Positions 6,632 through 20,471 of a stretch of DNA of 40,297 nt are shown one piece after another. Under the pieces are notes generated by a model. It worked only from the letters and a program-made list of their open reading frames with translations. It had not been told where the DNA came from and did not search any database. The position numbers were made by a program, and so were the translations under genes. Numbering within the stretch: position 1 is the stretch's first letter; every line of letters begins with the position of its first letter. The stretch comes from Comamonadaceae bacterium (GTDB lineage: Bacteria > Pseudomonadota > Gammaproteobacteria > Burkholderiales > Burkholderiaceae_C): positions 1 to 40,297 of the forward strand of contig CANCJD010000003.1 in the NCBI GenBank assembly GCA_947378275.1, written 5' to 3'.

Positions 6632-6634
6632 AAC

Positions 6635-6663: not shown

Positions 6664-6688
6664 CATTTCGGCGAGGGCGCGTGCCCGT

Positions 6689-7891
6689 CTACACCCGCTC
6701 TAACACCAGCGCAATCCCCTGCCCCACACCAATGCACATGGTGCACAGCGCGTAGCGGCCACCGGTGGCGTGCAGGCGGTTGATGGCCGTGGTGGCAAGG
6801 CGGGCGCCAGAGGCACCCAGCGGGTGACCCAAGGCAATGGCACCGCCCCAGGCGTTGACGCGAGCGTCGTCGTCTTTCAATCCCAGCAAACGCAACACGG
6901 CCAGGCCTTGGGCGGCAAAGGCTTCGTTGAGCTCGATCACATCCATCTGCTCTAGCGTGAGCCCCGCCAGTGCCAGGACCTTGAGGGTGGCGGGCGCCGG
7001 ACCTATGCCCATGACGCGCGGCGCAACACCTGCAGTGGCCATGGCGACGACGCGCGCTTTGGGCGTGAGGCCATACTGGGCAACGTCGGCCGCGCCCGCA
7101 AGCAGCACGGCACAGGCGCCGTCGTTCACACCGGATGCATTGCCCGCTGTCACGCTGCCGTCGGGCCGCACCACGCCTTTGAGTTTGGCCAGAGCCTCCA
7201 GGCTGGTTTCGCGCGGATGCTCGTCGGTGTGGACCACGAGGGCGTCGCCCTTTTTCTGGGGAATGTGAACCGGCACAATTTCTCGGGCCAGGTGGCCGGC
7301 TTTTTGTGCAGCCACCGCGCGCAGTTGGCTGTTCATGGCCATCAGGTCCTGCGCTTCGCGCTCAATCTGGTAGTCCACCGCCACGTTTTCTGCGGTTTCG
7401 GGCATGGAGTCCACTCCGTACTTTTCTTTCATCAGCTTGTTCACAAAGCGCCAGCCGATGGTGGTGTCGTACACCGCATTGGCGCGGCTGAACGCGGTTT
7501 CGGCCTTGGGCATGACAAAAGGTGCGCGGCTCATGCTCTCTACGCCACCGGCAATCACTAGTCCCGCTTCGCCCGCCTTGATGGCACGCGCGCCGGTGCC
7601 AATGGCGTCCAAGCCCGATCCGCACAAGCGGTTGACGGTGGCACCCGACACCTCAATGGGCAGACCCGCCAGGAGTGCACTCATGCGCGCCACGTTACGG
7701 TTGTCTTCACCGGCCTGGTTGGCGCAGCCATAAATCACATCCGACACCGCGGTCCAGTCCACTTGGGGGTTGCGTGCCATGAGCGCTTTGATGGGAATAG
7801 CGCCCAAATCGTCGGTACGCACCGAACTCAAAGCGCCGCCATAGCGGCCAAAGGGTGTGCGAACGGCGTCGCAGATAAAAGCGTCGGTCAT
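6689..7891 (-). CDS. pcaF: 3-oxoadipyl-CoA thiolase
   Basis: This 400-residue thiolase cleaves 3-oxoadipyl-CoA to acetyl-CoA and succinyl-CoA, the last step of the beta-ketoadipate pathway. The nucleophilic cysteine is in NRLCGSGLDA (about residue 88), the catalytic histidine in GHPLGASGAR and the second cysteine in CTMCIGVGQG near the C-terminus. The N-terminus (DAFICDAVRTPFGRYGG) is PcaF/PaaJ-like. It is the last gene of the long – strand operon, 24 nt after the CoA-transferase B subunit, and this neighbourhood picks PcaF over a general acetyl-CoA acetyltransferase. Confidence 0.93.
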   Translation of the reverse strand: MTDAFICDAVRTPFGRYGGALSSVRTDDLGAIPIKALMARNPQVDWTAVSDVIYGCANQAGEDNRNVARMSALLAGLPIEVSGATVNRLCGSGLDAIGTGARAIKAGEAGLVIAGGVESMSRAPFVMPKAETAFSRANAVYDTTIGWRFVNKLMKEKYGVDSMPETAENVAVDYQIEREAQDLMAMNSQLRAVAAQKAGHLAREIVPVHIPQKKGDALVVHTDEHPRETSLEALAKLKGVVRPDGSVTAGNASGVNDGACAVLLAGAADVAQYGLTPKARVVAMATAGVAPRVMGIGPAPATLKVLALAGLTLEQMDVIELNEAFAAQGLAVLRLLGLKDDDARVNAWGGAIALGHPLGASGARLATTAINRLHATGGRYALCTMCIGVGQGIALVLERV

Positions 7892-7915
7892 AGTCTCGTC
7901 AATGGTGGGTAGGTT

Positions 7916-8560
7916 TCAGGCTTGCACGGGCAAACCAATAAGCGATTCAAGCTCCATGATAGACAGCCCATCGACCAGGTCGATCAGCTGCAGGCCGTGT
8001 GGCGTGCAGGCCAAAGTGGCCAGGTCCGAATAAATACGCTTGACACAGGCGATGCCGGTCAGGGGGTAGCTGCACTGGCTGACGACCTTACTCTTGCCGT
8101 CTTTGGTCAGCAAGTCCATCATCACCCAGGTTTGTTGGGCCCCGACCGCCAGGTCCATGGCGCCGCCCACTGCCGGAATCGCGTCAGGCTCGCCGGTGCT
8201 CCAGTTGGCAAGGTCACCCGTGGCCGAGACCTGAAACGCACCCAGTACGCTGATGTCGATGTGGCCGCCACGCATCATGGAAAAGCTGTCGGCATGGTGG
8301 AAATAACTGCCCCCTGCCAACAGGGTCACGGGTTGCTTGCCCGCATTGATCAAGTCAAAGTCCTCGTCGCCTGCGGCAGGCGCAGGGCCCATACCCAAGA
8401 TGCCGTTCTCGCTGTGCAGCACGACCTCCAAGTCCTTGGGCAAATAATTGGCCACCAGCGTGGGCTGGCCAATCCCGAGGTTGACATAGGCGCCGTCAAA
8501 AATGTCGTGTGCCACCCTTTGGGCCAGCACTTGTTTGGTACGTTTGGTGTAGTGGGCCAT
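7916..8560 (-). CDS. pcaJ: 3-oxoadipate CoA-transferase subunit B
   Basis: This 214-residue beta subunit of a family I CoA-transferase, with PcaI, moves CoA from succinyl-CoA to 3-oxoadipate. The catalytic glutamate lies in the SENG motif (HSENGILGMGP, about residues 50-60), and GGAMDLAVGAQ is also typical. The open frame runs 27 codons further upstream into pcaI, but the ATG at 8560 (MAHYTKRTK) gives the normal N-terminus and length. It starts 7 nt after the pcaI stop. Confidence 0.93.
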   Translation of the reverse strand: MAHYTKRTKQVLAQRVAHDIFDGAYVNLGIGQPTLVANYLPKDLEVVLHSENGILGMGPAPAAGDEDFDLINAGKQPVTLLAGGSYFHHADSFSMMRGGHIDISVLGAFQVSATGDLANWSTGEPDAIPAVGGAMDLAVGAQQTWVMMDLLTKDGKSKVVSQCSYPLTGIACVKRIYSDLATLACTPHGLQLIDLVDGLSIMELESLIGLPVQA

Positions 8561-8567
8561 GGCTGAT

Positions 8568-9290
8568 TTAAGCTGGTGTGGCGGCCTTGAATCCGCCTGC
8601 CTTGGTGGATACACGCTCGATCTGCACGATGTGTGAGACAAAGATACCCGGGGTGACCACGTGCTCCGGGTCCAGCACGCCGAGCTCTACGATGTCATGG
8701 ACCGTGGCAACGGTGTGCTTGGCAGCAGCAGCCATGACCGGGCCAAAGTTACGTGCGGCTTTTCTGTAGGTCAGATTTCCCCAACGGTCACCGGACTCCG
8801 CCTTGACCAAGGCCACATCGCCATGGATGGGAAACTCCAGCACATAGGATTTGCCGTTGATAACCCGGGTTTCTTTGGCACTGCCATCGGGGTTCAGGGC
8901 CAGCTGGGTGCCGAAGCCGGTGGGCGTGAAAAAAGCGCCAATACCAGCACCCGCAGCGCGCAAGCGCTCCGCAAGATTGCCCTGCGGCACCAGCTCAAGC
9001 TCAATCTGTTTGCTACGGTACAGCGCGTCGAACACATGGGAGTCCGCCTGCCGAGGAAAGCTGCATATGATTTTTCTCACACGCCGTGTATTGAGTAATG
9101 CCGCCAGCCCGGCGTCGCCATTGCCTGCGTTGTTGTTGACTACTGTGAGGTCGCGCGCACCATGCTCGATCAAGCCATCGATAAGCTCATTGGGAATGCC
9201 GGCAGTGCCAAAACCGCCGATGAGCACGGTGTCTCCATCCTTCACTCGCGCAAGCGCCTGCGCAATCGAATTGGCAACCTTGTTAATCAT
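8568..9290 (-). CDS. pcaI: 3-oxoadipate CoA-transferase subunit A
   Basis: This 240-residue alpha subunit has the CoA-transferase signature GGFGTAGIPNELIDGL at about residues 25-40, followed by VNNNAGNGDAGLAALL and the ESGDRWGNLTYRK segment. Succinyl-CoA:acetoacetate transferases of the same family look similar. The adjacent thiolase and hydroxyquinol dioxygenase favour 3-oxoadipate as the acceptor. Its ATG overlaps the 3' end of the dioxygenase gene by 8 nt, consistent with translational coupling. Confidence 0.92.
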   Translation of the reverse strand: MINKVANSIAQALARVKDGDTVLIGGFGTAGIPNELIDGLIEHGARDLTVVNNNAGNGDAGLAALLNTRRVRKIICSFPRQADSHVFDALYRSKQIELELVPQGNLAERLRAAGAGIGAFFTPTGFGTQLALNPDGSAKETRVINGKSYVLEFPIHGDVALVKAESGDRWGNLTYRKAARNFGPVMAAAAKHTVATVHDIVELGVLDPEHVVTPGIFVSHIVQIERVSTKAGGFKAATPA

Positions 9291-10116
9291 GGCTTTCGTT
9301 CAGTACAAAATCAAAATGAAGCTGGGTATTTCCGTCAGGCTGTTTGACCCAGTCGGCAATCAAGGATTCGCGAACTCCAAACACGGCGTCTGATTCCAGG
9401 TATTTGTCACCATTGCGAAAAACATGGGTAATCAGAGTCTCGAACCCCGGCGCCTTGATCATGAAATGCAAATGCGCGGGCCGCCAAGGGTGGCGCCCGG
9501 TCGCCCGCAGAAGCTCCCCCACCGGTCCGTCGGTAGGAATGGGGTAAGCCTCCGCAACAATGGTATTGAAGTGAAACCGGCCCTCGCTATCGGCCTGAAG
9601 TCTTGCGCGCGCTTGGAGTGCGTGCAACTCGGGTCGCTGCACGTCATAAAAACCTTCTTCATCGGCTTGCCAGACTTCCAACTGTGCATGGGCCACCGCC
9701 TGTCCATGGCTGCCGACCACCCGTCCTGACACCGTGCACGGCTGACCAGGTGCGCCCTGCGCCACATCGCCGCCCAAGGGCACAATGGGCGCATCTTCCA
9801 CAAAAAAGGGACCAAACACCGTGGCCTCAGTGCAGCCTGGCGGCTTCTGGTTGTTCATGGCCACGGTCAGCATGGACAGGCCCAACACGTCGCTAAGCAA
9901 AATAAATTCCTGGCGTTTGTCGTCGCACTTTTGCCCGGTGCGGGTGAGAAATTGAATCGCGTGCATCCACTCCTCCTCGCTCAACGTCACGTCGCGCGCA
10001 AAGTCGTGCAGATGGTGCACCAGGCTGGTCAGAATGGTTTTGAGCCGCGCATCGGGCATATCGCCCATGCGCTCCAACACGGCTTGAGTGATGGTGTTTT
10101 GGTCTACGTTTTTCAT
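9283..10116 (-). CDS. Hydroxyquinol 1,2-dioxygenase (intradiol, Fe(III))
   Basis: This 277-residue intradiol dioxygenase opens hydroxyquinol (1,2,4-trihydroxybenzene) to maleylacetate. The ligand set is Y157 (GFYDVQ), Y191 (AYPIPTDGPVG), H215 and H217 (RPAHLHF), the canonical 2-Tyr/2-His Fe(III) site. An N-terminal helical dimerisation domain (residues 1-95) precedes TEATVFGPFFVEDAP. The PIPTDGPVG loop and the pathway context favour hydroxyquinol over catechol; chlorocatechol is a less likely alternative. The gene overlaps the Dabb gene by four bases (ATGA) and pcaI by eight. It is the equivalent of pnpG in 4-nitrophenol clusters. Confidence 0.88.
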   Translation of the reverse strand: MKNVDQNTITQAVLERMGDMPDARLKTILTSLVHHLHDFARDVTLSEEEWMHAIQFLTRTGQKCDDKRQEFILLSDVLGLSMLTVAMNNQKPPGCTEATVFGPFFVEDAPIVPLGGDVAQGAPGQPCTVSGRVVGSHGQAVAHAQLEVWQADEEGFYDVQRPELHALQARARLQADSEGRFHFNTIVAEAYPIPTDGPVGELLRATGRHPWRPAHLHFMIKAPGFETLITHVFRNGDKYLESDAVFGVRESLIADWVKQPDGNTQLHFDFVLNESHD

Positions 10117-10439
10117 AAAGAGGAGCCCGTGTTGAGTTCAAAGTCGACTTGCTTGCGCTCCATTCTCATGGGGCCGACCAGACGCTTGATTTCCAGATGG
10201 GCGGGATGGTCGGCATAGGCCTCCAGCGCAGCCCGGTTTTCAAAGCGCATGGACAAGGCCAGATCCCAGGCGTCGGGGGCATCGACCACATTGACGCCAA
10301 CCTGCATGTCCAACACACCAGCGATGGTGCCACGTGTTGACTCAAACGCAGCGACTGCGGTACGCGCTTGCGACAGCCGTTCTTCAGCCGTGGTGCCATT
10401 CATGCGCCACATGACGATGTGAACGATCTGGCCGCTCAC
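10113..10439 (-). CDS. Dabb-fold (stress-responsive A/B barrel) small protein
   Basis: This 108-residue protein matches the Dabb/ferredoxin-like dimeric barrel family. It has IVHIVMWRM at the N-terminus, a central GVNVVDAPDAWDLALSMRFENR, and AYADHPAHLEIKRLVGPM near the end. The family includes small cyclases and isomerases as well as uncharacterised proteins. I choose the GTG at 10439 because it forms a GTGA overlap with the livM-type stop. The frame extends 27 codons further, but that part lies inside the permease gene. The 3' end overlaps the dioxygenase start as ATGA, so it is coupled on both sides. A role in hydroxyquinol or maleylacetate handling is inferred from position only. Confidence 0.75.
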   Translation of the reverse strand: MSGQIVHIVMWRMNGTTAEERLSQARTAVAAFESTRGTIAGVLDMQVGVNVVDAPDAWDLALSMRFENRAALEAYADHPAHLEIKRLVGPMRMERKQVDFELNTGSSL

Positions 10440-11455
10440 GCCGACGGCCCCGTTGTGAGCACCACGCGCCTTTGCGTGGGGAACAAGGACCAGCCCCAGC
10501 GCTGCTGCACATAGCCCCACAAGCCTTGCTTAAAGTAAATCGTGGTCAGGATCGCCAGCAAGCCCAGCCCCATCAAGTACCAGGAGCCGAAATCACTGAA
10601 AAACTTGCTGAGCAACCAAAACACCAGCGTTCCCACCAAGGGGCCTTCGATGCGACCCATGCCCCCAATCACCACCATGAAAATGGCAAACGCTGTCCAG
10701 TTGACACTGAACGCCGCGTCGGGGCTGATGCGCAGATTGCCGACAAAGTACAGCGCGCCAGCCAGCCCCGCGCCAAAGGCAGCCACCGCATAGACCGCCA
10801 ACTTCATAGAACCGACGGCAATGCCTTGGGACTCCGCGGCCACGGGGTTGTCGCGAATCGCCAGTAGCGCCAGTCCGCGCTTGCTTCGCAAAAACAGGTA
10901 CACCAACGTAATACTGGCCACCACGCACAGCAAGGCAATCCAATAGGTCCACGATTCGCGGCTTGCCTTGTCAATGCCGCGCAGCGCCGTGAGCGTGGTG
11001 CCCGCTCCTCCGCCCACCGCACTCAGGTTGGCAAAGCTCAATCGAAACACCTCGGCAATCACCCAGGTGCCAATGGCAAAGTAGCCGCCCTGCAAGCGAA
11101 ATGCAATCCGCGAGACCGGTATTGCCACCAAGCCCGCCACAAGGCCGCCAATCGCAATCGCAACAAAGGGGTTGACGCCCCAAAAATTGCCCAAGACCAG
11201 CATGGTGTAGGCACCCAAGCCAAAAAAGGCTTGCTGACCGATCGACACCATGCCCCCATAGCCGGCCAACAAGTTCCACATCAGGGCAAAAATAAAGTGA
11301 CAAGCAATCTCCACAAATTCATGCAACCAACTCGACTCTGCCCACAGCGGCAAGCTGGCCGCCGCGATGACGGCTACCAACGCAACTACCAACAAAACCC
11401 GTGTGTAAGCGTGGCCGCGTTCCACAGCAAACTGTTTTTCAATGATGGGGTTCAT
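10436..11455 (-). CDS. Liv-type ABC transporter permease (LivM family)
   Basis: This 339-residue inner-membrane permease has about eight to ten hydrophobic segments. The family segment MVSIGQQAFFGLGAYTM is at about residues 69-85 and the EAA-like coupling loop RSKRGLALLAIRDNPVAAES at about 190-209. It is one of two membrane subunits of the importer encoded with genes 11464-15039. LivM-family permeases serve branched-chain amino acids but also aromatic acids and phenolics. Placement inside an aromatic catabolic operon points to an aromatic substrate. Confidence 0.9.
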   Translation of the reverse strand: MNPIIEKQFAVERGHAYTRVLLVVALVAVIAAASLPLWAESSWLHEFVEIACHFIFALMWNLLAGYGGMVSIGQQAFFGLGAYTMLVLGNFWGVNPFVAIAIGGLVAGLVAIPVSRIAFRLQGGYFAIGTWVIAEVFRLSFANLSAVGGGAGTTLTALRGIDKASRESWTYWIALLCVVASITLVYLFLRSKRGLALLAIRDNPVAAESQGIAVGSMKLAVYAVAAFGAGLAGALYFVGNLRISPDAAFSVNWTAFAIFMVVIGGMGRIEGPLVGTLVFWLLSKFFSDFGSWYLMGLGLLAILTTIYFKQGLWGYVQQRWGWSLFPTQRRVVLTTGPSA

Positions 11456-11463
11456 AAGCAGCC

Positions 11464-12318
11464 TTAACGCGTTTTAGGGAACAGACCTTGGGGCTTGACG
11501 AGCAGCACGAACAAGAACATCAAGTGCCCGGCCCAGACGCCCCATCCCGGATCGAGTCGAAAACCCACCTGCTGCGTCACACCCAGCAACATGCTGCCAG
11601 CCAGGGTGCCCCAAAAACTGCCCATTCCACCCATGATCACCGCCTCAAAGGCAAACAGCAGCAACATCGGGCCGTCCGAGGGTGCCACCGTCGTTCGCAA
11701 GCCCTGCAAGACACCCGCCATGGCGATCAGCACAAAGGCCAGTGCGGTCGCCAGAGCATAAACATTTTGGGAGCGCAGTCCCATGAGCTCAGCGATCTCA
11801 GGGTCATCCGACACCGCACGAAAGGCACGACCTAGACGGGTGTTGGCAAACAGCCACTGCAAGCCCACGGTTGCAATGAGCGCAATGCACAAAATCAGGG
11901 TTGGTAAAACGCCCACCGACAGCGAGTCGCTCAGGGCGAGACTTTGAATATTGAGGCCGTTGGATTCAATGGATCGGGGGTCGGCAGAAAACGTTTCCAG
12001 CAAAGCGTTTTGAATCACGATGGACAGGCCAAAGGTCACGACCAGCGAGGGCACCGGGTCTTTTCCCAGCGTTTGGTTCAGTACATAGCGCTGGATGGCA
12101 TAACCAAGCAAGGCAGCAATCGGTAGCACCACAACATCCGCCACCCAAGGATTGAGACCCCAGCCGTTGAGGGCCAACGCGCCGAAGGCGCCCAAAATGA
12201 TGAAGTCGCCGTGTGCCGTGTTGGTCAAGCGCATGACGCCAAACATCAAGGACAGGCCCAGCGCAAACAAGGTGTAGAGCCCACCGAGTAATACGCCTTG
12301 TAGTAGCAATTCAAACAT
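11464..12318 (-). CDS. Liv-type ABC transporter permease (LivH family)
   Basis: This 284-residue integral membrane protein of the LivH family begins LLLQGVLLGGLYTLFALGLS. It has the typical NTAHGDFIILGAFGA segment at about residues 33-47 and the cytoplasmic coupling loop NTRLGRAFRAVSDDPEIAEL. It lies 8 nt upstream of the LivM-type gene and 15 nt downstream of the LivF-type ATPase gene in the same operon. It forms the heterodimeric channel with the LivM-type subunit. Confidence 0.9.
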   Translation of the reverse strand: MFELLLQGVLLGGLYTLFALGLSLMFGVMRLTNTAHGDFIILGAFGALALNGWGLNPWVADVVVLPIAALLGYAIQRYVLNQTLGKDPVPSLVVTFGLSIVIQNALLETFSADPRSIESNGLNIQSLALSDSLSVGVLPTLILCIALIATVGLQWLFANTRLGRAFRAVSDDPEIAELMGLRSQNVYALATALAFVLIAMAGVLQGLRTTVAPSDGPMLLLFAFEAVIMGGMGSFWGTLAGSMLLGVTQQVGFRLDPGWGVWAGHLMFLFVLLVKPQGLFPKTR

Positions 12319-12333
12319 ACTGAGATCTAGGAG

Positions 12334-13050
12334 TTAGAGGCCAAAATAGGCTTGCCGAATTTGCTCGCGCGTCAGGTCTGATGAATTACCTTGCAAGGAA
12401 ACACGGCCTTCTTGCAGGCAATATAGGCGCTGTGTCATGCGCTGCGCCAGGCTGACATCCTGCTCGACCAGCACCACGGCCATGCCCTCGGACGTAATTT
12501 CGGGCAGTGCGTTGTAAATTTCGCGAACCACAATAGGCGCCAAGCCAAGCGACAGCTCGTCACACAGCAGCAGCTCGGGGTTGCTCATCAAGGCGCGGCC
12601 GATGGCCACCATTTGCTGCTGGCCGCCCGACAAAGAGGTGCTGGGTTGGTTGCGCTTTTCTTGCAGGATGGGGAACAGCTTGAACAAGCGGTCCAGATTC
12701 CAAGGCCCAGTGCGACCGGACTCTTGGCCCATCAACAGGTTTTCTTGCACCGACAAAGAAGGGAATAAGCGCCTCCCTTCGGGCACCAACGCCAATCCCA
12801 TCCGTACGATTTCACTGGGCGCGCGCCCACCCACCGGCTGGCCTTTCCACTGAATCTGAGCGGATGGAACCTTAACGAGTCCAGTCAAGGCCTTCAACAA
12901 GGTGGACTTGCCTGCACCATTGGCACCAATGATGGCAATAGCTTCGCCCTTGCCGATTTCAAGGTCAATGCCAAACAAGGCTTGCGCATCGCCATAAAAC
13001 GCTTGCAGATTGCGGGTTTGGAGCAAGAGGTCCTTATTGGTGGATGCCAT
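12334..13050 (-). CDS. Liv-type ABC transporter ATPase (LivF family)
   Basis: This 238-residue cytoplasmic ATPase has Walker A GANGAGKST near residue 42, the full ABC signature LSGGQQQM, Walker B LLLCDELSLGLAP and the H-loop region VLVEQDVSLA. The C-terminus (REQIRQAYFGL) is LivF-like. It begins immediately after the LivG-type stop. With the LivG-type subunit it powers the importer. Confidence 0.92.
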   Translation of the reverse strand: MASTNKDLLLQTRNLQAFYGDAQALFGIDLEIGKGEAIAIIGANGAGKSTLLKALTGLVKVPSAQIQWKGQPVGGRAPSEIVRMGLALVPEGRRLFPSLSVQENLLMGQESGRTGPWNLDRLFKLFPILQEKRNQPSTSLSGGQQQMVAIGRALMSNPELLLCDELSLGLAPIVVREIYNALPEITSEGMAVVLVEQDVSLAQRMTQRLYCLQEGRVSLQGNSSDLTREQIRQAYFGL

Positions 13051-13776: not shown

Positions 13777-13785
13777 TTTTCTTCC

Positions 13786-15039
13786 TTACATCAGCTTCAA
13801 TGTGCCGCCAACGGGGATTGATTTGGCGGTTTCATTGTTGACGATGGTCAGCTCGTAGCGGTGTTTCTGGCCCTTGTTCCATTGACCGAGCACCAGCGGT
13901 GTTTTGCTGACATTTTTGAAGGGGCCTTGGCCGCCCCAGGCCACATCACCCACCACGGTTTTCATTTTGGTGCCGGCCACAGCGTCGCGAACGTCGGTTG
14001 CTTTCAGGGACTTGCTGCGCTTCAAAGCGTCAGTGGCGACTTCGAACAAGGCATGGGCAAAACCAATGGGCTGGGTCCACTGCTTCTTGGTGCTGCTCTC
14101 GTACTGTTCAGCCAGCGCTTTGGCGCTTTGCTTGGTCAGGCTCGAAGCAAAGGGGTGCGACGGGCTCCACCACACTTCGGTGGACAGGCCTTCTCCCAAA
14201 TCGCCCAAGGCTTCGATCGCGCCTGGGAACAACAAGGCTTTGCCCAAGGTAATGACCTTGGGTTTGAAGCCCTGTTGCTTGGCTTGCGTGAGGAATGTTT
14301 TTGCATCCGGGGGAATCACCACACCGGTAACGATTTCCACGCCGTCTTTCTTGAACGCTGCAATTTGGGCCGAGAAATCTTGCGTACCGTTTTGGAAACG
14401 GCCTGGATCGGTCAGTGAGTAACCCATCGCAGACAGGGGTTTGGGGAAGCCAAGCTCCTTGTCGCCCCAGGCATTGCCGTCGCCGTCATTGGGGAACAGA
14501 CCGCCCACTTTCTTGTTGGTTTTGACCGACTGCCACCCGTTGGTGAAGTTGGCGATCACGTCCTCCAGGCCCCAGAAGATGTGGTACGTGAAGTTAAAGC
14601 CGGTAGCTGGATTGCCCTTACGGCCAAAGAACCAGGGCTGCCATGGCACGACGCTGGAAATGCAGGGCACTTCATTGAGTTCGCACACATCGCTGACGGG
14701 ATTGGCGGTCTCAGGCGTGCCTGCGGTCAACACGAGTGCGACTTTGTCTTTGAGCACCAGGTCACTGGCCACTTCGCCGGCGCGGTTGGGATTGGACTGG
14801 CTGTCTTTCAAAATGATCTGCACAGCGTGCTTTTTGCCACCGATGTCTATGCCGTCCTTGAAGGCGGCGGTCATTTGTTCAATGACCCATTTGTCCGCTT
14901 CACCGAAAGGTGCGAGTGGGCCGGTTTGGGGAGACACGTAGCCAATCTTGACCACGTCCGCAGCCCAAACCAAGGGGCTAACGCTGGACACGGCGGCAAT
15001 CGCCATACCTTGGGTAAATGTTCTACGGGAAAAGTTCAT
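13786..15039 (-). CDS. Periplasmic substrate-binding protein of Liv-type ABC importer
   Basis: This 417-residue type I periplasmic binding protein (LivK/aromatic-binding group) has an N-terminal signal of about 26 residues. It carries a twin-arginine-like SRRTFT and ends in VWA-AD, so export by Tat is possible. The mature protein starts VVKIGYVSPQTGPLAPFGEA, the usual opening of the family. A GGAG site precedes the ATG at 15039. It is the first importer gene of the operon and sits between maleylacetate reductase and the ATPases. The ligand cannot be read from sequence; hydroquinone, hydroxyquinol or an aromatic precursor is inferred from context. Confidence 0.9.
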   Translation of the reverse strand: MNFSRRTFTQGMAIAAVSSVSPLVWAADVVKIGYVSPQTGPLAPFGEADKWVIEQMTAAFKDGIDIGGKKHAVQIILKDSQSNPNRAGEVASDLVLKDKVALVLTAGTPETANPVSDVCELNEVPCISSVVPWQPWFFGRKGNPATGFNFTYHIFWGLEDVIANFTNGWQSVKTNKKVGGLFPNDGDGNAWGDKELGFPKPLSAMGYSLTDPGRFQNGTQDFSAQIAAFKKDGVEIVTGVVIPPDAKTFLTQAKQQGFKPKVITLGKALLFPGAIEALGDLGEGLSTEVWWSPSHPFASSLTKQSAKALAEQYESSTKKQWTQPIGFAHALFEVATDALKRSKSLKATDVRDAVAGTKMKTVVGDVAWGGQGPFKNVSKTPLVLGQWNKGQKHRYELTIVNNETAKSIPVGGTLKLM

Positions 15040-15080
15040 AGCAGTCTCCTAGTGGTTGGTGTGTAAAACGCGAGAAAAAA

Positions 15081-16148
15081 TCAATGCGGGCGACGCCCCT
15101 CAAATGCGTCTTGCAGCAAAGCCAGCAAGGGTTCACGCATCAAGGGTCGGGGATTGGGGTATTGGTTTTGCAGCGCAATTTCAAGCGCTTTGTGCAGATC
15201 CTGCTCTTGCAGACCCAGTTCCCTCAACGAAGTAGGTGCGCCGTTGCCATGCGCGAGGTCGTACACCGCCCGTGCGGCGGACACAGTGCTGTGCACACCC
15301 AGCGCAGATTGAATCCGCTGCATCGCCAGCGGCGCAGCGCTGGCGTTGTAGGCCAACGCATGGGGCAGCACGACAGTATGGGTTTGCGCATGGGGCAGAT
15401 TGAAGCTGCCGCCCAGCGTATGGCAGAGCTTGTGGTGCAAGGCCATGCCGACGTGTCCCAGCACACTTCCGCACAACCACGCGCCATACAGCGCATCGTG
15501 TCGCGCCTCGGGGACATGCGTCTGCTGTTTCAATCGGGGAATGGCGCGGCCCAGTGCTGCAATCCCTTCGGCCGCCATCAGGTCAATGATGGGGTTGCCA
15601 TCCACCGCGTAGAGGCCTTCGGCGGCATGGGCAATGGCGTTGATGGCGCTGGTGACACTCAAATCCACGGGCAGGCTGTAACTGAGCTCGGGGTCGTAAA
15701 TGACGGTGCGCGGCAATACACGCGCATCACGTCCTGTCTTTTTCAAACCGTTATCGGTGATGCCGTAAATCGGCGTCATTTCCGAGCCTGCGTAGGTCGT
15801 GGGAATTGCCAAAATCGGCAGACCCGACTCCAAGGCAATGGCTTTACCCAAGCCGGTGGTACTGCCGCCACCCACTGCGACAGCGCAGTCTGCGCCCAAA
15901 TCCTGCGCAAGTGCACGGGCTTGCTGCGCAGTCTCCAGGGGCACATGCATCACTGCGCGGTCAAAAATCCCCACTGATTTGTCGCCCAGCAGTTCACTCA
16001 CCCGCTGGGCCAGCCCATATTGCTCCGGGGTGCACAGTACCAAGGCACGGTTGCAGCCCATGGCGACAATTTCAGCGCTCAATTGCTGAAGACTGCCCGC
16101 TCCAAAGACGACCCTGCCGGGCAATGGAGAATGAACAAACGCACGCAT
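15081..16148 (-). CDS. pnpF: Maleylacetate reductase
   Basis: This 355-residue NAD(P)H-dependent reductase of the iron-type alcohol dehydrogenase fold converts maleylacetate to 3-oxoadipate. The nucleotide-binding GGGSTTGLGKA is at residues 93-103, followed by AIPTTYAGSEMTPIYG, AIAHAAEGLYA and the metal-site-like region GHVGMALHHKLCHTLGG. FVHSPLPGRVVFGAG at the N-terminus is characteristic of the family. The frame extends 31 codons upstream, but the ATG at 16148 gives the standard length. It starts 7 nt after the aldehyde dehydrogenase. Both ring-cleavage routes in this operon meet at its substrate. Confidence 0.93.
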   Translation of the reverse strand: MRAFVHSPLPGRVVFGAGSLQQLSAEIVAMGCNRALVLCTPEQYGLAQRVSELLGDKSVGIFDRAVMHVPLETAQQARALAQDLGADCAVAVGGGSTTGLGKAIALESGLPILAIPTTYAGSEMTPIYGITDNGLKKTGRDARVLPRTVIYDPELSYSLPVDLSVTSAINAIAHAAEGLYAVDGNPIIDLMAAEGIAALGRAIPRLKQQTHVPEARHDALYGAWLCGSVLGHVGMALHHKLCHTLGGSFNLPHAQTHTVVLPHALAYNASAAPLAMQRIQSALGVHSTVSAARAVYDLAHGNGAPTSLRELGLQEQDLHKALEIALQNQYPNPRPLMREPLLALLQDAFEGRRPH

Positions 16149-16155
16149 AAAAATA

Positions 16156-17667
16156 TCAAGGCCGGGCGTAGTGCGGCGCGATCTGCGCGTCGACATTGAC
16201 CCAAATGCTCTTGACCTGGGTGTACTCGCGCATGGCGTCAAAACCCATTTCGCGGCCGTAACCCGACATGCCCGAACCTCCGAAGGGCGAGCCCGGATTG
16301 ACCCGCTTGTAGCAGTTGATCCACACCATGCCGCTCTTCATGTCGCGGGCAAACTTGTGTGCGCGCTGCAAATTGTTGGTCCACAGGCCGCCGCCCAATC
16401 CGTACTCGGTGCTGTTGGCTATTTGCAAGGCCTCCTGGTCGTCTTTGAAGGTGAGAACCGTCACAAAAGGACCAAACACTTCTTCCTGGGCAATGCGGTC
16501 ACGCCAGCCGGATGCGCGAACAATGGTGGGCTCCACGTAGCAACCGTTGGCCAGATCACCTGTGGGTGCTTTACCGCCCGACAGTACCTCACCGCCCTGG
16601 CTGCGTGCGACCTCGACGTAGCTCAACACACGATCGCGGTGCTGCAGGCTGGTCAAAGGGCCCATCTCGGTATGGGGATCCAAGGGGTTGCCCAGCCGGA
16701 TGCTGCGGGCCAGCGGTATGAACTTTTCCAAGAAGGCGTCGGCAATTTTTTCGTGCAGGACCAAGCGCGAACCCGCAATGCAGGCTTGGCCTTGGTTGTG
16801 AAAAATCGCCCATGCCGCGCCGTTGACGGCAGCAAGCAAATTGGCGTCCTCAAACACAATATTGGCGCCCTTGCCGCCTAGCTCCAATTGCACCTTTTTG
16901 AGATTGCCTGCACTGGCTTGGACAATGCGGCGTCCCGTGGCGGTGCTGCCGGTGAACGCGATTTTAGAAATGCGGTCGTGCTCTGCAATCGCCTGGCCGG
17001 CCACCGTTCCCAGGCCTGGCAGGATGTTCACCACGCCCTCGGGCATGCCCGCCTCCGCCATCAACTCCGCAATTTTGAGTGAGGACAGTGGCGTGATTTC
17101 AGCCGGCTTCAGGACGATGCAATTGCCCGCCGCCAGGGCGGGTGCCATCTTCCAGCTGGTAAACATCAGCGGGAAATTCCATGGCACCACCTGTCCTACG
17201 ACGCCCACGGGTTCGCGCAAGGTGTAGTTCAGGAAGCCCACCTCCACCGGAATTTGCTCGCCCTGGAATTTGTCCGCCATGCCACCGAAGTAGCGGTAAG
17301 TAACTGCGGTGCGCGGCACGTCCAACATGCGCGAATCGCGAATCGGGTGCCCGGTGTCCAGGGACTCCAAGCGCGCCAATTCTTCGGCATTGCCTTCAAT
17401 CAAATCCGCCAGCTTGAGCAAAATGCGGCCCCGGTCCATGGCCGCCATGCGGCTCCATTTGGGCAAGGCTGCTTCGGCAGCCTGCACTGCCAATTCGACA
17501 TCGGCCGCGCCCGCCATGGCAACGTCCGCAATCCTGGAGTTGTCGTGCGGGTTCAAGGTGGGCATTGTTTCGCCCGATTGCGCATCAACAAACCGTCCGT
17601 TAATGAACAACTGGTGGCGAATCGGCGTGCGAAGCCCTGCCGCTTGCGCGATGTCAGCAAGATCCAT
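16156..17667 (-). CDS. pnpE: 4-hydroxymuconic semialdehyde dehydrogenase (aldehyde dehydrogenase family)
   Basis: This 503-residue NAD(P)-dependent aldehyde dehydrogenase has the oxyanion asparagine N164 (PWNF), general base E262 (LELGGKG) and nucleophile C296 (QGQACIAGSR). EEVFGPF and the C-terminal PFGGSGMSGYGRE segment are intact. Family sequence alone gives only a generic ALDH. The gene directly follows the hydroquinone dioxygenase subunits and precedes maleylacetate reductase, the same order as pnpCDEF. This assigns oxidation of 4-hydroxymuconic semialdehyde to maleylacetate. A ribosome site AGGGG precedes the ATG at 17667. Confidence 0.88.
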   Translation of the reverse strand: MDLADIAQAAGLRTPIRHQLFINGRFVDAQSGETMPTLNPHDNSRIADVAMAGAADVELAVQAAEAALPKWSRMAAMDRGRILLKLADLIEGNAEELARLESLDTGHPIRDSRMLDVPRTAVTYRYFGGMADKFQGEQIPVEVGFLNYTLREPVGVVGQVVPWNFPLMFTSWKMAPALAAGNCIVLKPAEITPLSSLKIAELMAEAGMPEGVVNILPGLGTVAGQAIAEHDRISKIAFTGSTATGRRIVQASAGNLKKVQLELGGKGANIVFEDANLLAAVNGAAWAIFHNQGQACIAGSRLVLHEKIADAFLEKFIPLARSIRLGNPLDPHTEMGPLTSLQHRDRVLSYVEVARSQGGEVLSGGKAPTGDLANGCYVEPTIVRASGWRDRIAQEEVFGPFVTVLTFKDDQEALQIANSTEYGLGGGLWTNNLQRAHKFARDMKSGMVWINCYKRVNPGSPFGGSGMSGYGREMGFDAMREYTQVKSIWVNVDAQIAPHYARP

Positions 17668-17738
17668 GGAAACCCCTGGCGCCCATCACGGACGCATGAA
17701 TTGAAAAAATGAAAGGCCCGTGGCCAAAGGCCGTGTGG

Positions 17739-18746
17739 TTAAAACCGAACCGGCACCTGGGGCGCGTCACCGTTTTGGATTTCGTACACCAGCTTGGGCG
17801 ACCCGTTCTCCCACACCAGCAACATGGAGCGTTTGGGGCTGAATCCCTGGTGGCGGCAGTAAGCAGGCATGGCGGCCATATCGCCCGCCTTCATGACCAC
17901 GCGTGCCAGCGGTTTTCCGGTATCGCGGTGGGCACAGTCCCAGCTGATTTCATCGCTCATCTGGAAGAACCATTCCACGCGATCGTTGGAGTGCATGATG
18001 GGCAAGATGTGCTCTTCGGTGGTGGGACACATAAAGCTGTACTTCACCACGCTGGTGAACGAAGGGTTCCAGGTCACCTGAGAGCGGCTTAGGAACGCAA
18101 ACAAGTTGAAGGCATGGACTTCATTTTCAAAACCAGGCTCGGGATGCAACTCGGGTTGGTCCTGCGGAACATCGGCAAAAGCGCGGTTGACCGGAGCGCC
18201 ACGGGCATCGGTGCGCATCGGCAAATCGCCTTGCAAGCCGACACAGCGTGTTGCCAATTCACGGGCACGGGTAATGGCGGCCTTGTTATTGCCCGTTTTG
18301 CGGCCGTAGGGGCTGCCGGTTTCTTGGGGTGCGGAGAAAGGATCGAAACTTGCGTTGGTCCAGTCGTCCAAAATTTCAAAGAAGGTGGCCGCGATTTGAT
18401 CGGTAGGGAAGTTTTCCAACAGATCCACACCCGCTGCCTTCAAGGTTTCGTTGAACGCACCGGCCTGTAGATCGACCGATTGGTAATGGTTCACGGTGCC
18501 AATCACTTCGTCAAAATTGACGCCGCCATAAAAGAATCCCCAGGCCACATCGCGCATCAGCGCGCGCAAGAAGTTGCCGATGTCCATGCTGTGCGACATG
18601 GGGCGGCCATCGCGCGTGCTCCATTCAATGTGCGCAAAGTATTCGTCCCGGCGGAAGCCGAAGGAACCTAATTTGAAATCGCGATATCCCATCACGGCGT
18701 GGGGTGCGGAGGCAATGATCTTGGCCATTTCTACAGGTGCGTTCAT
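17739..18746 (-). CDS. pnpD: Hydroquinone 1,2-dioxygenase large subunit
   Basis: This 335-residue protein matches the large subunit of the Fe(II) hydroquinone 1,2-dioxygenases (PnpD/HapD type), which cleave hydroquinone to 4-hydroxymuconic semialdehyde. H252-x-N254-x3-E258 (MHSNDRVEWFF) and H299 (YCRHQG) match, at a constant offset of four, the metal ligands I recall for PnpD (H256, N258, E262, H303). The gene follows the small subunit by 42 nt. The ATG at 18746 has GGAG 8 nt upstream; a TTG four codons earlier is a poorer start. It precedes pnpE by 71 nt, which hold a small GC hairpin and a T-rich run. Confidence 0.87.
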   Translation of the reverse strand: MNAPVEMAKIIASAPHAVMGYRDFKLGSFGFRRDEYFAHIEWSTRDGRPMSHSMDIGNFLRALMRDVAWGFFYGGVNFDEVIGTVNHYQSVDLQAGAFNETLKAAGVDLLENFPTDQIAATFFEILDDWTNASFDPFSAPQETGSPYGRKTGNNKAAITRARELATRCVGLQGDLPMRTDARGAPVNRAFADVPQDQPELHPEPGFENEVHAFNLFAFLSRSQVTWNPSFTSVVKYSFMCPTTEEHILPIMHSNDRVEWFFQMSDEISWDCAHRDTGKPLARVVMKAGDMAAMPAYCRHQGFSPKRSMLLVWENGSPKLVYEIQNGDAPQVPVRF

Positions 18747-18788
18747 AACGATCTCCAAATATTCAAAAAATTGTTGCGTCGCTCAAGG

Positions 18789-19295
18789 TCAGGCCATTTG
18801 GCAAATTTCTGACCACTTTTCCACCGACAGGTCGCCTTTGCAGGTTTGAAGCACAAGCACTGCTGGATGCGCGCTGCGGAATTGGTAGGCGGTGTTTTTG
18901 GGCAACATGCCCTGGTGCCCGCGCTTGAGCTTCATCCAACCCATTTTTTGACCCTGGGGCTCACCTTGCACCAAGACAGCACCGTTCTTTTCAGTGTCCG
19001 CCACGGTTTGGTGGGCATCAAGTTTGACGAGGTGAACTTCAACCTCGCCGTCCATGCTCAGCGCAAACTCGTCGTGCGCACAGGTGTACCAAGGCGATGC
19101 GCCTTCTGCACGCAGCACCTCGAGGACGTAAATTTGGTTCTGACCAAACACCACTTTTTCGTAGGGCTTGGACTTGCTCGCAGTCTCGAAACAATTGGAA
19201 AAAGCGTAATGCCGCACGTCGTCGTCGATCGGTTCGACACGGCCTTTTTCGAAATGCTTCAGGGAACCGAATTTGGTTTCGTAAGTCACGCTCAT
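18789..19295 (-). CDS. pnpC: Hydroquinone 1,2-dioxygenase small subunit
   Basis: This 168-residue cupin-like protein matches the small subunit of two-component hydroquinone dioxygenase (about 18 kDa). Typical segments are FGSLKHFEKGRVEPIDDD, DVRHYAFSNCFE, SPWYTCAHDEFALSMDGEVE and GHQGMLPKNTAYQF. It forms a heterotetramer with PnpD in characterised systems. The ATG at 19295 has AGGAG 8 nt upstream; the alternative GTG nine bases earlier overlaps that site. It is the first gene of the catabolic operon, 177 nt downstream of the LysR regulator gene. Confidence 0.87.
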   Translation of the reverse strand: MSVTYETKFGSLKHFEKGRVEPIDDDVRHYAFSNCFETASKSKPYEKVVFGQNQIYVLEVLRAEGASPWYTCAHDEFALSMDGEVEVHLVKLDAHQTVADTEKNGAVLVQGEPQGQKMGWMKLKRGHQGMLPKNTAYQFRSAHPAVLVLQTCKGDLSVEKWSEICQMA

Positions 19296-19405
19296 GGATC
19301 TCACTCCTGGGTTGAAAGTCCCGGCCGCTGCACTGTGATGGCAAGGAATGGACGCACTGTAGACGCGCTTTGAACCCGGCGCTAGGGGTTAAATTTGGAC
19401 TGATC

Positions 19406-19424
19406 TGTTCTATTAAATCGAACA
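19406..19424. promoter_or_regulatory. Candidate LysR-type operator (TTC-N9-GAA) in the operon promoter region
   Basis: TGTTC-N9-GAACA is a perfect 5-bp inverted repeat containing the T-N11-A core of LysR-type sites. It lies 111 nt upstream of the pnpC start. A second short palindrome (AGGGT-AA-ACCCT) is at 19431-19442. On the – strand TTTACC-N17-TAATAG could be -35/-10, which would place the box over the -10; this promoter is tentative. Confidence 0.5.
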
Positions 19425-19472
19425 ATAGTCAGGGTAAACCCTAAAAATCGCATGAATTCAACAGAAAAAGCC

Positions 19473-20420
19473 CTAAGCTCGGATGAGATTGGCAGGAAAA
19501 AGCGAACGCTCGATCAATACGCGATCCCACGGTGGCATGTCGGTAAATGCCTGGGTGATGTGCTCAATCAGCAGCCGCAATTTGTATTCTTGGCGGGAGG
19601 TGGCCGCAAACACCGCACAGAGTTGAAAGGACGTGAGTTGGTGCTCTGGCATCACCACCTCCAGGTCACCGCGCTGCAAGGCCTCAGACGCAACCAAGGT
19701 CGGCACACACACAATGCCAGCGTGCTCCAGAGCATATTCCCGCAACAGATGCACACTGTTGGTCAGCAGCGCAGCTCGCAAATACAAAGTGGCCTGCTCT
19801 CCTTTGTGGTGAAAGGTCCAGCGGTCGCGGGTGGGATAGCCGGAATACAAGCCCAACTTATGCCGGTGCAAATCGCGCGGGTCGTTCGGCCGGCCGTGCT
19901 TTTCAAGGTATTGGGGCGTTGCGCAAAAGACCCGTCGAACCGGAAAAAGTGGTTTGCTGACCACCTCGGTGGACTGCGCCGGGAAAATTTGCAAAGCGCA
20001 ATCCACCCCGGCTTTAACCGGGTCCACCACGGAGTCACTGACGATCAAATCTAAACGGATGTCTGGGTAGAGCAGCTGAAACTGGTGCAGCATGGATGCA
20101 AAATGGCCTAGCACCAGCCCGGTAAGCGCATGTACTCGCAGCGTGCCCGACGGCTTGCCACGTACATCGCGCATTTGATCGACGATGTCACCCGCCCTGG
20201 CGACCAAATCGGTGCAGTCGCTCAAATAGGCCTGACCGACCTCGCTAAGGCGAACCACCCGCGTGCTGCGGTGGAACAGCGGCGCCCCGACGTGTTCTTC
20301 CAACTGCTTGATACGCATCGTGACAACGGACCTTGCGATGCGGAACTGCCGGGCAGCCTCAGCGAAACTCTGAGTCTGGGCGACGCGCACAAAGGTCTCG
20401 ATGTTTTGCAGGAGGTCCAT
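19473..20420 (-). CDS. LysR-type transcriptional regulator of the hydroquinone operon
   Basis: This 315-residue LysR-family regulator has the N-terminal winged helix-turn-helix (FVRVAQTQSFAEAARQF and VVTMRIKQLEEHVGAPLF, residues 9-50) followed by a substrate-binding domain. The frame extends 24 codons upstream, but MDLLQNIETFVRV at the ATG 20420 is the normal LysR start. It is transcribed in the same direction as the catabolic genes it precedes, whereas many LysR regulators are divergent. It is the probable activator of the operon; the effector is unknown, and a pathway compound such as hydroquinone is plausible by analogy with PnpR. Confidence 0.88.
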   Translation of the reverse strand: MDLLQNIETFVRVAQTQSFAEAARQFRIARSVVTMRIKQLEEHVGAPLFHRSTRVVRLSEVGQAYLSDCTDLVARAGDIVDQMRDVRGKPSGTLRVHALTGLVLGHFASMLHQFQLLYPDIRLDLIVSDSVVDPVKAGVDCALQIFPAQSTEVVSKPLFPVRRVFCATPQYLEKHGRPNDPRDLHRHKLGLYSGYPTRDRWTFHHKGEQATLYLRAALLTNSVHLLREYALEHAGIVCVPTLVASEALQRGDLEVVMPEHQLTSFQLCAVFAATSRQEYKLRLLIEHITQAFTDMPPWDRVLIERSLFPANLIRA

Positions 20421-20471
20421 AAGGGCTTTTCTTGATGATTCATTGTAGGGTGCCCCTATGAAGTTTTTTCT

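What the first reader, a model, noticed from the sequence alone, without database searches (positions are those of the whole stretch)
6689..20420. Self-contained hydroquinone/hydroxyquinol operon from uptake to central metabolism
Fourteen – strand genes with very small gaps or overlaps encode hydroquinone dioxygenase (two subunits), semialdehyde dehydrogenase, maleylacetate reductase, a five-part ABC importer, a Dabb protein, hydroxyquinol dioxygenase, 3-oxoadipate CoA-transferase and thiolase, behind a LysR regulator. In the 4-nitrophenol and 4-hydroxyacetophenone clusters I know, an importer and pcaIJF are not part of the same unit. Here one transcript could cover transport, ring cleavage and conversion to acetyl-CoA plus succinyl-CoA.
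Basis: partly seen in the sequence, partly recalled or inferred. Interest (0 to 1): 0.72.

Follow-up and report, generated by a model that had tools for sequence, protein, structure and literature searches.

The report
Hydroquinone-eating operon with own importer
A bacterium of the Comamonadaceae carries one compact gene unit that very probably takes in and fully breaks down hydroquinone-type ring compounds, and the pairing of the ring-breaking enzyme with a dedicated importer turns out to be widely kept among its relatives.

Summary
Fourteen minus-strand genes (19295 to 6689, largest gap 71 nt) encode HqdA/HqdB, a PnpE-type semialdehyde dehydrogenase, maleylacetate reductase (MAR), a five-part HAAT-type ABC importer, Dabb, hydroxyquinol dioxygenase and PcaI/J/F, behind a same-strand LysR gene (ATG at 20420). 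Protein families, solved relatives and metal-site residues support the assignments.

It is not unique. Importer genes follow hqdAB in 54 of 57 relative loci with enough sequence; MAR is recognised in 42 of 57. Importer plus hydroxyquinol dioxygenase plus pcaI within 20 kb is rarer (8 of 34 genomes). Three other families of the order repeat the theme.

I add a promoter: a GTT-N11-AAC operator (19423-19407), the motif footprinted for PnpM/PnpR at the Pseudomonas hydroquinone operon; an operator of this kind with a -10-like box at one fixed spacing occurs in 73 of 79 upstream regions. A hairpin terminator follows pcaF. Two same-genus genomes lack the operon at this tRNA-Asn site.

One inducible transcript is plausible but unproven. 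The importer's substrate is open: no gene in the unit makes hydroquinone; hydroquinone, an aromatic acid or a conjugate remain possible. Verdict: a new variant of a known pathway; ten searches of an open-licence library found no description.

The parts
19473..20420 (-). LysR-type regulator, probable activator of the operon
   Evidence: Pfam LysR_substrate and HTH_1; no NCBIfam LysR model over its cut-off among those shown; ATG at 20420; same position in most relative loci
19432..19441 (-). GGGTTTACCC element upstream of the operator
   Evidence: a GGG..CC element lies in front of the second operator form in 52 of 79 upstream regions
19406..19426 (-). LysR-type operator ATTGTTC-N9-GAACA, containing GTT-N11-AAC at 19423-19407
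   Evidence: same motif as the footprinted PnpM/PnpR site at pnpCDEFG (PMC5603801, passages)
19356..19361 (-). probable -10 box TACAGT of the operon promoter
   Evidence: TA.A.T at one fixed distance from the operator in 73 of 79 upstream regions; not reported by the plain consensus scan
18789..19295 (-). hqdA, hydroquinone 1,2-dioxygenase small subunit
   Evidence: 4zxa_A 2.6e-53, 5m21_A 1.3e-52; no Pfam match at 0.001
17739..18746 (-). hqdB, hydroquinone 1,2-dioxygenase large subunit
   Evidence: PnpCD_PnpD_N 1.1e-58; 4zxa_W 7.7e-130, aligned H256, N258, E262, H303 kept
16156..17667 (-). 4-hydroxymuconic (gamma-hydroxymuconic) semialdehyde dehydrogenase
   Evidence: 4go4 gamma-hydroxymuconic semialdehyde dehydrogenase 2.7e-235; unnamed 4o6r 6.6e-242; first betaine-aldehyde dehydrogenase 2.3e-139; no NCBIfam model over its cut-off among those shown
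15081..16148 (-). maleylacetate reductase
   Evidence: 3jzd 2.2e-143; maleylacetate reductases 3w5s 1.3e-105 and 3hl0 2.2e-105
13786..15039 (-). HAAT-type substrate-binding protein of the importer
   Evidence: Peripla_BP_6 2.6e-37
13051..13776 (-). importer ATPase, LivG type
   Evidence: ABC_tran, BCA_ABC_TP_C
12334..13050 (-). importer ATPase, LivF type
   Evidence: ABC_tran
11464..12318 (-). importer permease, LivH type
   Evidence: BPD_transp_2
10436..11455 (-). importer permease, LivM type
   Evidence: BPD_transp_2
10113..10439 (-). Dabb protein, role unknown
   Evidence: Dabb 1.6e-19; found in 10 relative loci, 8 of them beside a hydroxyquinol dioxygenase match, but 15 of 23 loci with that dioxygenase show no Dabb; alignment
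9283..10116 (-). hydroxyquinol 1,2-dioxygenase (intradiol)
   Evidence: 1tmx 3e-81, positions Y164, Y197, H221, H223 kept; first catechol dioxygenase 2.5e-35
8568..9290 (-). pcaI, 3-oxoadipate CoA-transferase subunit A
   Evidence: TIGR02429 358 bits, cut-off 128.5
7916..8560 (-). pcaJ, 3-oxoadipate CoA-transferase subunit B
   Evidence: TIGR02428 274.8 bits, cut-off 243.55
6689..7891 (-). pcaF, 3-oxoadipyl-CoA thiolase
   Evidence: TIGR02430 695.1 bits, cut-off 597
6635..6663 (.). hairpin with A/T-run flanks between pcaF and the convergent tRNA-Asn gene; probable two-way terminator
   Evidence: 12-pair stem, -16.9 kcal/mol, z -3.36 on the minus strand; -19.4 kcal/mol, z -3.93 on the plus strand; not listed by the pattern scan
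6556..6631 (+). tRNA-Asn(gtt), left neighbour of the variable site

Best explanation
This is a LysR-activated catabolic operon for hydroquinone-type rings. The regulator most likely binds the GTT-N11-AAC operator at 19423-19407 and, with an aromatic inducer, starts transcription near 19350; the message most likely runs to the hairpin at 6663-6635. The HAAT importer brings the ring substrate, or its immediate precursor, into the cell. HqdAB opens hydroquinone to 4-hydroxymuconic semialdehyde, the dehydrogenase makes maleylacetate, the reductase makes 3-oxoadipate, and PcaIJ and PcaF finish to acetyl-CoA and succinyl-CoA. Hydroxyquinol joins at maleylacetate through the intradiol dioxygenase. 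Shown here by computation: genes, spacing, family membership, conserved metal-site residues, conserved operator and -10 box, conserved importer pairing, absence at the same site in two relatives. Inferred: one transcript, transcription start, inducer, import substrate (hydroquinone itself about 0.4), role of Dabb. The reaction order is established pathway knowledge.
For: Family and sequence matches to solved proteins for the enzymes. HqdB keeps positions H256, N258, E262, H303 of 4zxa (that these bind iron is recalled). The intradiol enzyme keeps Y164, Y197, H221, H223 of 1tmx (ligand role recalled). Gaps of at most 71 nt, with three overlaps and one zero gap. Operator: TTC-N9-GAA in 42 of 79 upstream regions against 3.8 on average and 8 at most in 200 dinucleotide shuffles; 34 of 62 after dereplication. 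GTT-N11-AAC in 33 of 79, other spacings from 5 to 17 at most 8. Either of two operator forms in 74 of 79, with the -10-like box at one spacing in 73 of 79. The motif was footprinted for PnpM and PnpR at the hydroquinone operon of Pseudomonas WBC-3 (PMC5603801, passages). In P. putida DLL-E4 hydroquinone is the effector of the corresponding operon (PMC4871426, passages). Importer genes after hqdAB in 54 of 57 loci; in eleven other hqdB-positive genomes the SBP is found in 10 and lies on the hqdB contig within 5 kb in 8. Terminator-like sites inside the region no more than chance: 21 against 19.6.
Against: No gene in the unit is of a kind that makes hydroquinone or hydroxyquinol, and hydroquinone is uncharged and may cross membranes unaided, so an ABC importer for it would be unusual. 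Importer relatives at 56-58% identity sit in clusters without hqdAB: with two intradiol dioxygenases, MAR and an FAD monooxygenase in Rhizobium johnstonii, and with no aromatic-ring cleavage gene annotated in Pacificitalea. Some hqdAB units lack the importer: Massilia putida plasmid with hqdB 79% identical (29 kb), G359, L009, L018, L076, pPNP1. The SBP has only weak solved relatives by sequence (best 2.3e-11), and the fold match does not separate amino-acid from aromatic-acid binders. Fifteen of 57 loci show no MAR, so the route is not complete in every relative cluster. A weak hairpin lies between hqdB and aldh (-8.1 kcal/mol, z -0.96). The plain promoter scan did not report the proposed promoter. 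In Pseudomonas WBC-3 the main inducer is 4-nitrophenol, with hydroquinone a weak one. Kinship of this LysR to PnpM or PnpR was not tested. No expression data exist for this organism here.
Confidence: 0.72

Rival explanations
1. The importer carries an aromatic acid or a conjugate (hydroxybenzoate type, aryl sulfate), which enzymes encoded elsewhere turn into hydroquinone or hydroxyquinol; the operon is only the lower half.
For: Several solved HAAT proteins matched by fold bind hydroxybenzoates, coumarate, caffeate or vanillate (titles; weak sequence matches). In Rhizobium johnstonii the related importer sits beside an FAD-dependent monooxygenase. A sulfatase gene lies somewhere in 15 of 80 relative loci, which would fit a sulfate conjugate.
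Against: The window unit carries no such enzyme. The best FAD_binding_3 match in the held genome is a PobA-type 4-hydroxybenzoate 3-monooxygenase, which points to protocatechuate instead; the genome is only 70% complete. The importer stays with hqdAB while accessory genes change.
Confidence: 0.4
2. The true ring substrate is a substituted hydroquinone (methyl, methoxy, chloro), hydroquinone itself being a side substrate.
For: The hydroquinone dioxygenase of Sphingomonas TTNP3 also degrades chlorinated and several alkylated hydroquinones (PMC3222310, abstract start in the listing).
Against: The lower pathway to 3-oxoadipate and PcaIJF fits the unsubstituted skeleton; a methyl or methoxy group would probably need further enzymes that are not in the unit (inference).
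Confidence: 0.2
3. There is no single unit: hqdAB, the importer and pcaIJF have their own promoters, and pcaIJF serves other pathways.
For: pcaI lies within 20 kb downstream in only 14 of 34 relatives' genomes; in 7 it lies 22-45 kb downstream on the same contig and strand and in 13 it is not on the hqdB contig, so linkage to pcaIJF is loose. A weak hairpin follows hqdB.
Against: Gaps of at most 41 nt from mar to pcaF, no excess of internal terminator-like sites and only one promoter-like match on the operon strand inside it. The genome has a second, partial pcaF-like copy at 78% identity at a contig edge, so the operon copy need not serve other routes.
Confidence: 0.2
4. The unit is a tRNA-targeted genomic island.
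For: Similarity to two relatives without the operon breaks two bases after the tRNA-Asn gene (6633) and resumes at 20509.
Against: No integrase among the genes and no second copy of the last 22 bases up to 6633 in the window with up to 5 mismatches. In G004 the operon lies beside the same IMPDH/GMP-reductase-type gene but other genes follow pcaF and its tRNA-Asn lies on another contig.
Confidence: 0.1

Closest known systems
pnpCDEFG / pnpC1C2DECX1X2 hydroquinone operons of 4-nitrophenol degraders (Pseudomonas WBC-3, P. putida DLL-E4; the unit on pPNP1 of Pseudomonas sp. JS425)
   Same: Two-subunit hydroquinone dioxygenase, semialdehyde dehydrogenase, maleylacetate reductase, hydroxyquinol-type dioxygenase; LysR control through GTT-N11-AAC in WBC-3
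   Different: Five importer genes sit after MAR and pcaIJF is appended here; on pPNP1 YciI and Rieske genes follow the dioxygenase where the window has Dabb before it; no nitrophenol monooxygenase or benzoquinone reductase gene in the window unit
Cluster of Rhizobium johnstonii 3841 plasmid pRL12 with intradiol dioxygenases
   Same: LysR, intradiol dioxygenase, MAR and the same kind of importer in the order MAR-SBP-ATPase-ATPase-permease-permease
   Different: No hydroquinone dioxygenase, no semialdehyde dehydrogenase and no pcaIJF in the 21 kb seen; has an FAD monooxygenase and a second intradiol dioxygenase; SBP 56% identical
Lower hydroquinone pathway without upstream genes in Pusillimonas of a bisphenol A community (PMC6366072, passages)
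   Same: Converts hydroquinone onward but lacks the genes that make it from 4-hydroxyacetophenone, so it may live on a neighbour's hydroquinone
   Different: No importer for hydroquinone in the passages seen; gene order not compared here

Membership tests
Two-subunit (PnpCD/HapCD-type) hydroquinone 1,2-dioxygenase | Large subunit of the PnpCD family with the four aligned metal-site residues | tested here: met
   PF18191 1.1e-58; 4zxa 7.7e-130 and H256, N258, E262, H303 kept (ligand role recalled)
Two-subunit (PnpCD/HapCD-type) hydroquinone 1,2-dioxygenase | Small subunit encoded next to it | tested here: met
   4zxa_A 2.6e-53
Two-subunit (PnpCD/HapCD-type) hydroquinone 1,2-dioxygenase | Ring opening of hydroquinone | not testable with these tools
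   needs an enzyme assay
pnpCDEFG-type hydroquinone operon | Dioxygenase, semialdehyde dehydrogenase, MAR and hydroxyquinol dioxygenase in one direction | tested here: met
   in the window the importer genes and dabb lie between MAR and the hydroxyquinol dioxygenase
pnpCDEFG-type hydroquinone operon | LysR-type operator GTT-N11-AAC before the dioxygenase genes | tested here: met
   19423-19407; literature motif from passages; binding not shown
pnpCDEFG-type hydroquinone operon | Induction by 4-nitrophenol or hydroquinone | not testable with these tools
   no expression data
HAAT (branched-chain amino acid type) ABC importer | Two permeases, two ATPases, one type I binding protein | tested here: met
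Aromatic-acid HAAT importer | Binding of an aromatic ligand | tested here: inconclusive
   fold matches include aromatic-acid and amino-acid binders at similar Z; model mean pLDDT 70.8
Hydroxyquinol 1,2-dioxygenase | Closest to hydroxyquinol rather than catechol enzymes, iron-site residues kept | tested here: met
   1tmx 3e-81, first catechol enzyme 2.5e-35 (ligand role recalled)
3-Oxoadipate lower pathway (PcaIJF) | Scores over the curated cut-offs | tested here: met
   TIGR02428, TIGR02429, TIGR02430; the first two models also cover other 3-oxoacid CoA-transferases
tRNA-targeted integrative island | Integrase gene and a repeated tRNA 3' end | tested here: not met
   no such gene among the fourteen; no repeat in the window at up to 5 mismatches in 22 bases

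The most novel reading that the evidence does not exclude
The unit is a dedicated hydroquinone-scavenging system: an ABC importer for a neutral dihydroxybenzene, kept with hydroquinone dioxygenase across several families of the order, which lets bacteria that cannot make hydroquinone live on traces released by neighbours or by breakdown of humic matter.
Probability: 0.4. Interest if true: 0.55.

Novelty: new variant of a known kind. Interest (0 to 1): 0.42.

Why it matters
Hydroquinone is a toxic breakdown product of many natural and man-made aromatics. A conserved importer-plus-dioxygenase unit without genes for making hydroquinone would mean that many Comamonadaceae treat it as a food to be taken up, not only as an internal intermediate. 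The importer's ligand and the operator are directly testable, and the unit could be used to predict hydroquinone use in genomes whose annotation calls the enzyme something else.

Tried and rejected
A tRNA-targeted island was considered because similarity to two relatives breaks two bases after tRNA-Asn; rejected for want of an integrase and a repeat, and because G004 has other genes after pcaF.

Uniqueness of the gene set was tested and rejected. The opposite, that the complete set is universal, is also wrong: hydroxyquinol dioxygenase and pcaI both lie within 20 kb downstream in 9 of 34 genomes, 8 of them with the importer; and some hqdAB units have no importer.

Accessory genes in relatives were sought first with a loose frame list, which gave many spurious antisense frames in G+C-rich DNA and was dropped in favour of chosen gaps and Pfam.

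The structure model of the SBP did not settle the ligand. Ten paper searches listed no paper that, from title, abstract start or the passages I opened, describes an importer inside a hydroquinone dioxygenase operon; the library holds only open-licence papers, so the original hap-cluster papers were not seen, and most listed papers were not opened.
Full report
WHAT IS THERE. The window is contig C3 of an unnamed 2.2 Mb assembly, 70% complete. Its closest hqdB relatives (99%: L001, L002, L003, L058) lie in assemblies titled Comamonadaceae or beta proteobacterium. Between 6689 and 20420 lie lysR and fourteen co-directional genes. Four frame starts in the mechanical list are probably too long; the restated junctions range from an 8-nt overlap to a 71-nt gap.

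ENZYMES. HqdB matches the solved hydroquinone dioxygenase large subunits 4zxa (7.7e-130) and 5m21 (6e-123) and keeps H256, N258, E262 and H303 of 4zxa; that these bind iron is recalled. HqdA matches their small subunits. The dehydrogenase scores 2.7e-235 with gamma-hydroxymuconic semialdehyde dehydrogenase 4go4, against 2.3e-139 for the first betaine-aldehyde enzyme; an aldehyde dehydrogenase without closer name, 4o6r, scores slightly better than 4go4. MAR matches 3jzd, 3w5s and 3hl0. The intradiol enzyme is nearest to 1tmx, a hydroxyquinol dioxygenase. PcaF passes the curated cut-off, as do the CoA-transferase halves at subfamily level. By established pathway knowledge these form a closed route from hydroquinone or hydroxyquinol to acetyl-CoA and succinyl-CoA.

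DISTRIBUTION. The scan found 435 relatives of hqdB and kept 80. Of these 80 loci, 57 have at least 9 kb after hqdB. Importer genes (three or more of the five, over 50% identity) follow in 54 of 57: all five in 45, four in 8, three in 1. Six of these last nine end within about 300 bases of the last match; L040, L057 and L078 have more room, so there the LivM gene is displaced or missing. L009, L018 and L076 have none. MAR is found in 42 of 57; in 11 of the other 15 the dehydrogenase and SBP genes are less than 120 bases apart, so there is no room for it. In 34 whole genomes behind these loci (35 asked, L059 not held), pcaI lies within 20 kb downstream of hqdB on the same strand in 14, hydroxyquinol dioxygenase in 23, both in 9, of which L076 lacks the importer; in 7 more pcaI lies 22-45 kb downstream and in 13 it is not on the hqdB contig. 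pcaJ, pcaF and Dabb were not counted in these genomes. In an even sample of the order, 10 of 399 genomes have hqdB at 1e-40, the window's own included. The SBP was then sought in eleven genomes: the nine others of those ten plus G004 and G006. Ten of eleven have it; in eight it lies on the hqdB contig within 5 kb; in G004 and G006 it lies on another contig of a broken assembly; G359 has none at 1e-40. In L091, L092, L095 and L099, from three other families of the order, pcaI, pcaJ, MAR, the importer and pcaF share the unit with hqdB; in L091 the dehydrogenase was not matched.

Against a strict tie: on a Massilia putida plasmid hqdB is 79% identical but no importer gene matched in 29 kb, nor on pPNP1 (17 kb). 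Twenty plasmid records hold hqdB at 1e-40; of these, three (Variovorax paradoxus, Caballeronia SBC1 and SBC2) appear among the 20 SBP rows shown, out of 239 records with an SBP relative at 1e-60, and linkage was confirmed in two of them, L103 and L104; the others were not examined except the two named above. The importer kind also occurs without hydroquinone dioxygenase: on plasmid pRL12 of Rhizobium johnstonii with two intradiol dioxygenases, MAR and an FAD monooxygenase, and in Pacificitalea with other genes.

PROMOTER. In 79 regions upstream of hqdA (the window, L091 and 77 of the 80 loci: hqdA over 65% identical and enough sequence; close relatives included) TTC-N9-GAA occurs in 42; 200 dinucleotide shuffles gave 3.8 on average and 8 at most. 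After dereplication it is 34 of 62. GTT-N11-AAC occurs in 33 of 79 and no other spacing from 5 to 17 exceeds 8. After looking at sequences without the first form I wrote a second one, ATYG-N12-GAACA, found in 56 of 79; this form is post hoc (mononucleotide shuffles 0.09 on average). Either form: 74 of 79; not in L007, L052, L069, L076, L091. The -10-like TA.A.T at one fixed spacing was not used to choose the sequences and accompanies an operator in 73 of 79; for the second form the spacing scan gave 55 at 44 nt and at most 1 at 36-43 and 45-53. An upstream GGG..CC element goes with the second form in 52 of 79. The ten sequences aligned were picked from those with the motif. By hand, the window's operator centre lies about 65 nt before the start that the -10 box predicts, where LysR regulatory sites usually lie (PMC5603801, passages). 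That paper reports GTT-N11-AAC in the footprints of PnpM and PnpR at the hydroquinone operon, with 4-nitrophenol as the main and hydroquinone as a weak inducer. The plain promoter scan did not list this promoter (2 sites found against 4.9 by chance). A single window match to GTTC-N9-GAAC is not by itself significant (0.48 expected); the weight lies in conservation.

END AND SITE. A 12-pair hairpin with A/T runs separates pcaF from the convergent tRNA-Asn. In G024 (75% complete) and G035 (99% complete), same-genus genomes in which hqdB was not found, the flanking genes and the tRNA are present on one contig, but 13.9 kb are replaced by about 0.4 kb and 2.0 kb of other sequence; the alignments stop at 6633 and resume at 20509 in both. 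Three of 37 genomes of the genus have hqdB: G000, G004 and, at 59% identity, G006. Gain in the window's lineage and loss in others cannot be told apart here. G004 carries hqdAB and lysR beside the same IMPDH/GMP-reductase-type gene (Pfam) and, on a second contig that starts in the same reductase gene, the rest of the operon with other genes after pcaF.

SOURCE OF THE SUBSTRATE. The held genome's best FAD_binding_3 match is PobA-type, next to an amidohydrolase and a TRAP transporter gene; a second pcaF-like fragment at 78% identity lies at a contig edge. The genome is only 70% complete and was searched for this one family only, so absence of a hydroquinone-making enzyme is not claimed. Relatives carry varying further genes somewhere in the locus (at 35% identity or more): an FAD protein and a cytochrome c in 12 of 80 loci, a SnoaL-like protein in 22, a sulfatase in 15, a TctC-type binding protein in 27, an IclR regulator in 8. 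Changing additions around a steady hqdAB-importer core would fit different feeder reactions into one shared uptake and cleavage path; this is inference.

LITERATURE. Seen: passages of PMC5603801, PMC4871426, PMC3871574, PMC9420511, PMC11936349 and PMC6366072; listings only for the rest. None of the passages describes an importer in such an operon. PMC9420511 mentions a branched-chain-type ABC transporter beside an amidase in a Microbacterium assembly, and hydroquinone dioxygenase genes elsewhere, in Alicycliphilus, without linking the two. PMC6366072 reports a Pusillimonas with the lower hydroquinone route but without the genes that make hydroquinone from 4-hydroxyacetophenone.

VERDICT. A sound observation and a sensible pathway reading. 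The unit is a new variant of the known hydroquinone operon, with a widely kept importer and a shared operator motif, and not a one-off. The open question is what the importer carries.

Noticed in passing
L105 13442-15011, L106 7950-8969; also plasmid hits H8, H13, H15-H20: Public plasmid annotation calls hydroquinone dioxygenase subunits 'hydroxyquinol 1,2-dioxygenase', although they match hqdA/hqdB, whose window copy belongs to the PnpCD family; this hides the enzyme from name searches.
   Followed up: partly
L011, L015, L024, L031, L048, L052, L056, L059, L064, L065, L067, L070, L074, L077, L079: Fifteen of 57 loci keep hqdAB, the dehydrogenase and the importer but show no maleylacetate reductase match in the stretch held.
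   Followed up: partly
L055 11072-13684; FAD protein and cytochrome c also in 11 further loci: An FAD_binding_2 protein (twin-arginine-like start by eye), a cytochrome c and a SnoaL-like protein sit between hqdB and the dehydrogenase in L055; they might feed reduced or saturated precursors into the path.
   Followed up: partly
L028 17834-19435 and 14 further loci: A sulfatase gene in or near the cluster hints at aryl sulfates as a source of hydroquinone. In L008 a transposase gene on the opposite strand (Pfam DDE_Tnp_1) follows a sulfatase-like frame.
   Followed up: partly
L101 6978-17352: Rhizobium johnstonii pRL12 has an importer-MAR-intradiol dioxygenase-FAD monooxygenase cluster without hydroquinone dioxygenase, perhaps a hydroxyquinol or resorcinol-type route.
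   Followed up: no
window 6633-20509; L085, L086, L090: The stretch between tRNA-Asn and the IMPDH/GMP-reductase-type gene is variable in the genus: 0.4 kb in G024, 2.0 kb with an outer-membrane-like frame in G035, the operon here; in G004 an FAD-linked-oxidase-like frame follows the tRNA (both frame labels are by eye, not searched).
   Followed up: partly
window 10113-10439; L106 12547-12864: Dabb here and YciI in pPNP1 stand beside the hydroxyquinol-type dioxygenase; both are small proteins of the ferredoxin-like barrel kind (fold kinship recalled). Dabb was found in 10 of the loci searched, in 8 of them with a hydroxyquinol dioxygenase match beside it; 15 of 23 loci with that dioxygenase show no Dabb.
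   Followed up: partly
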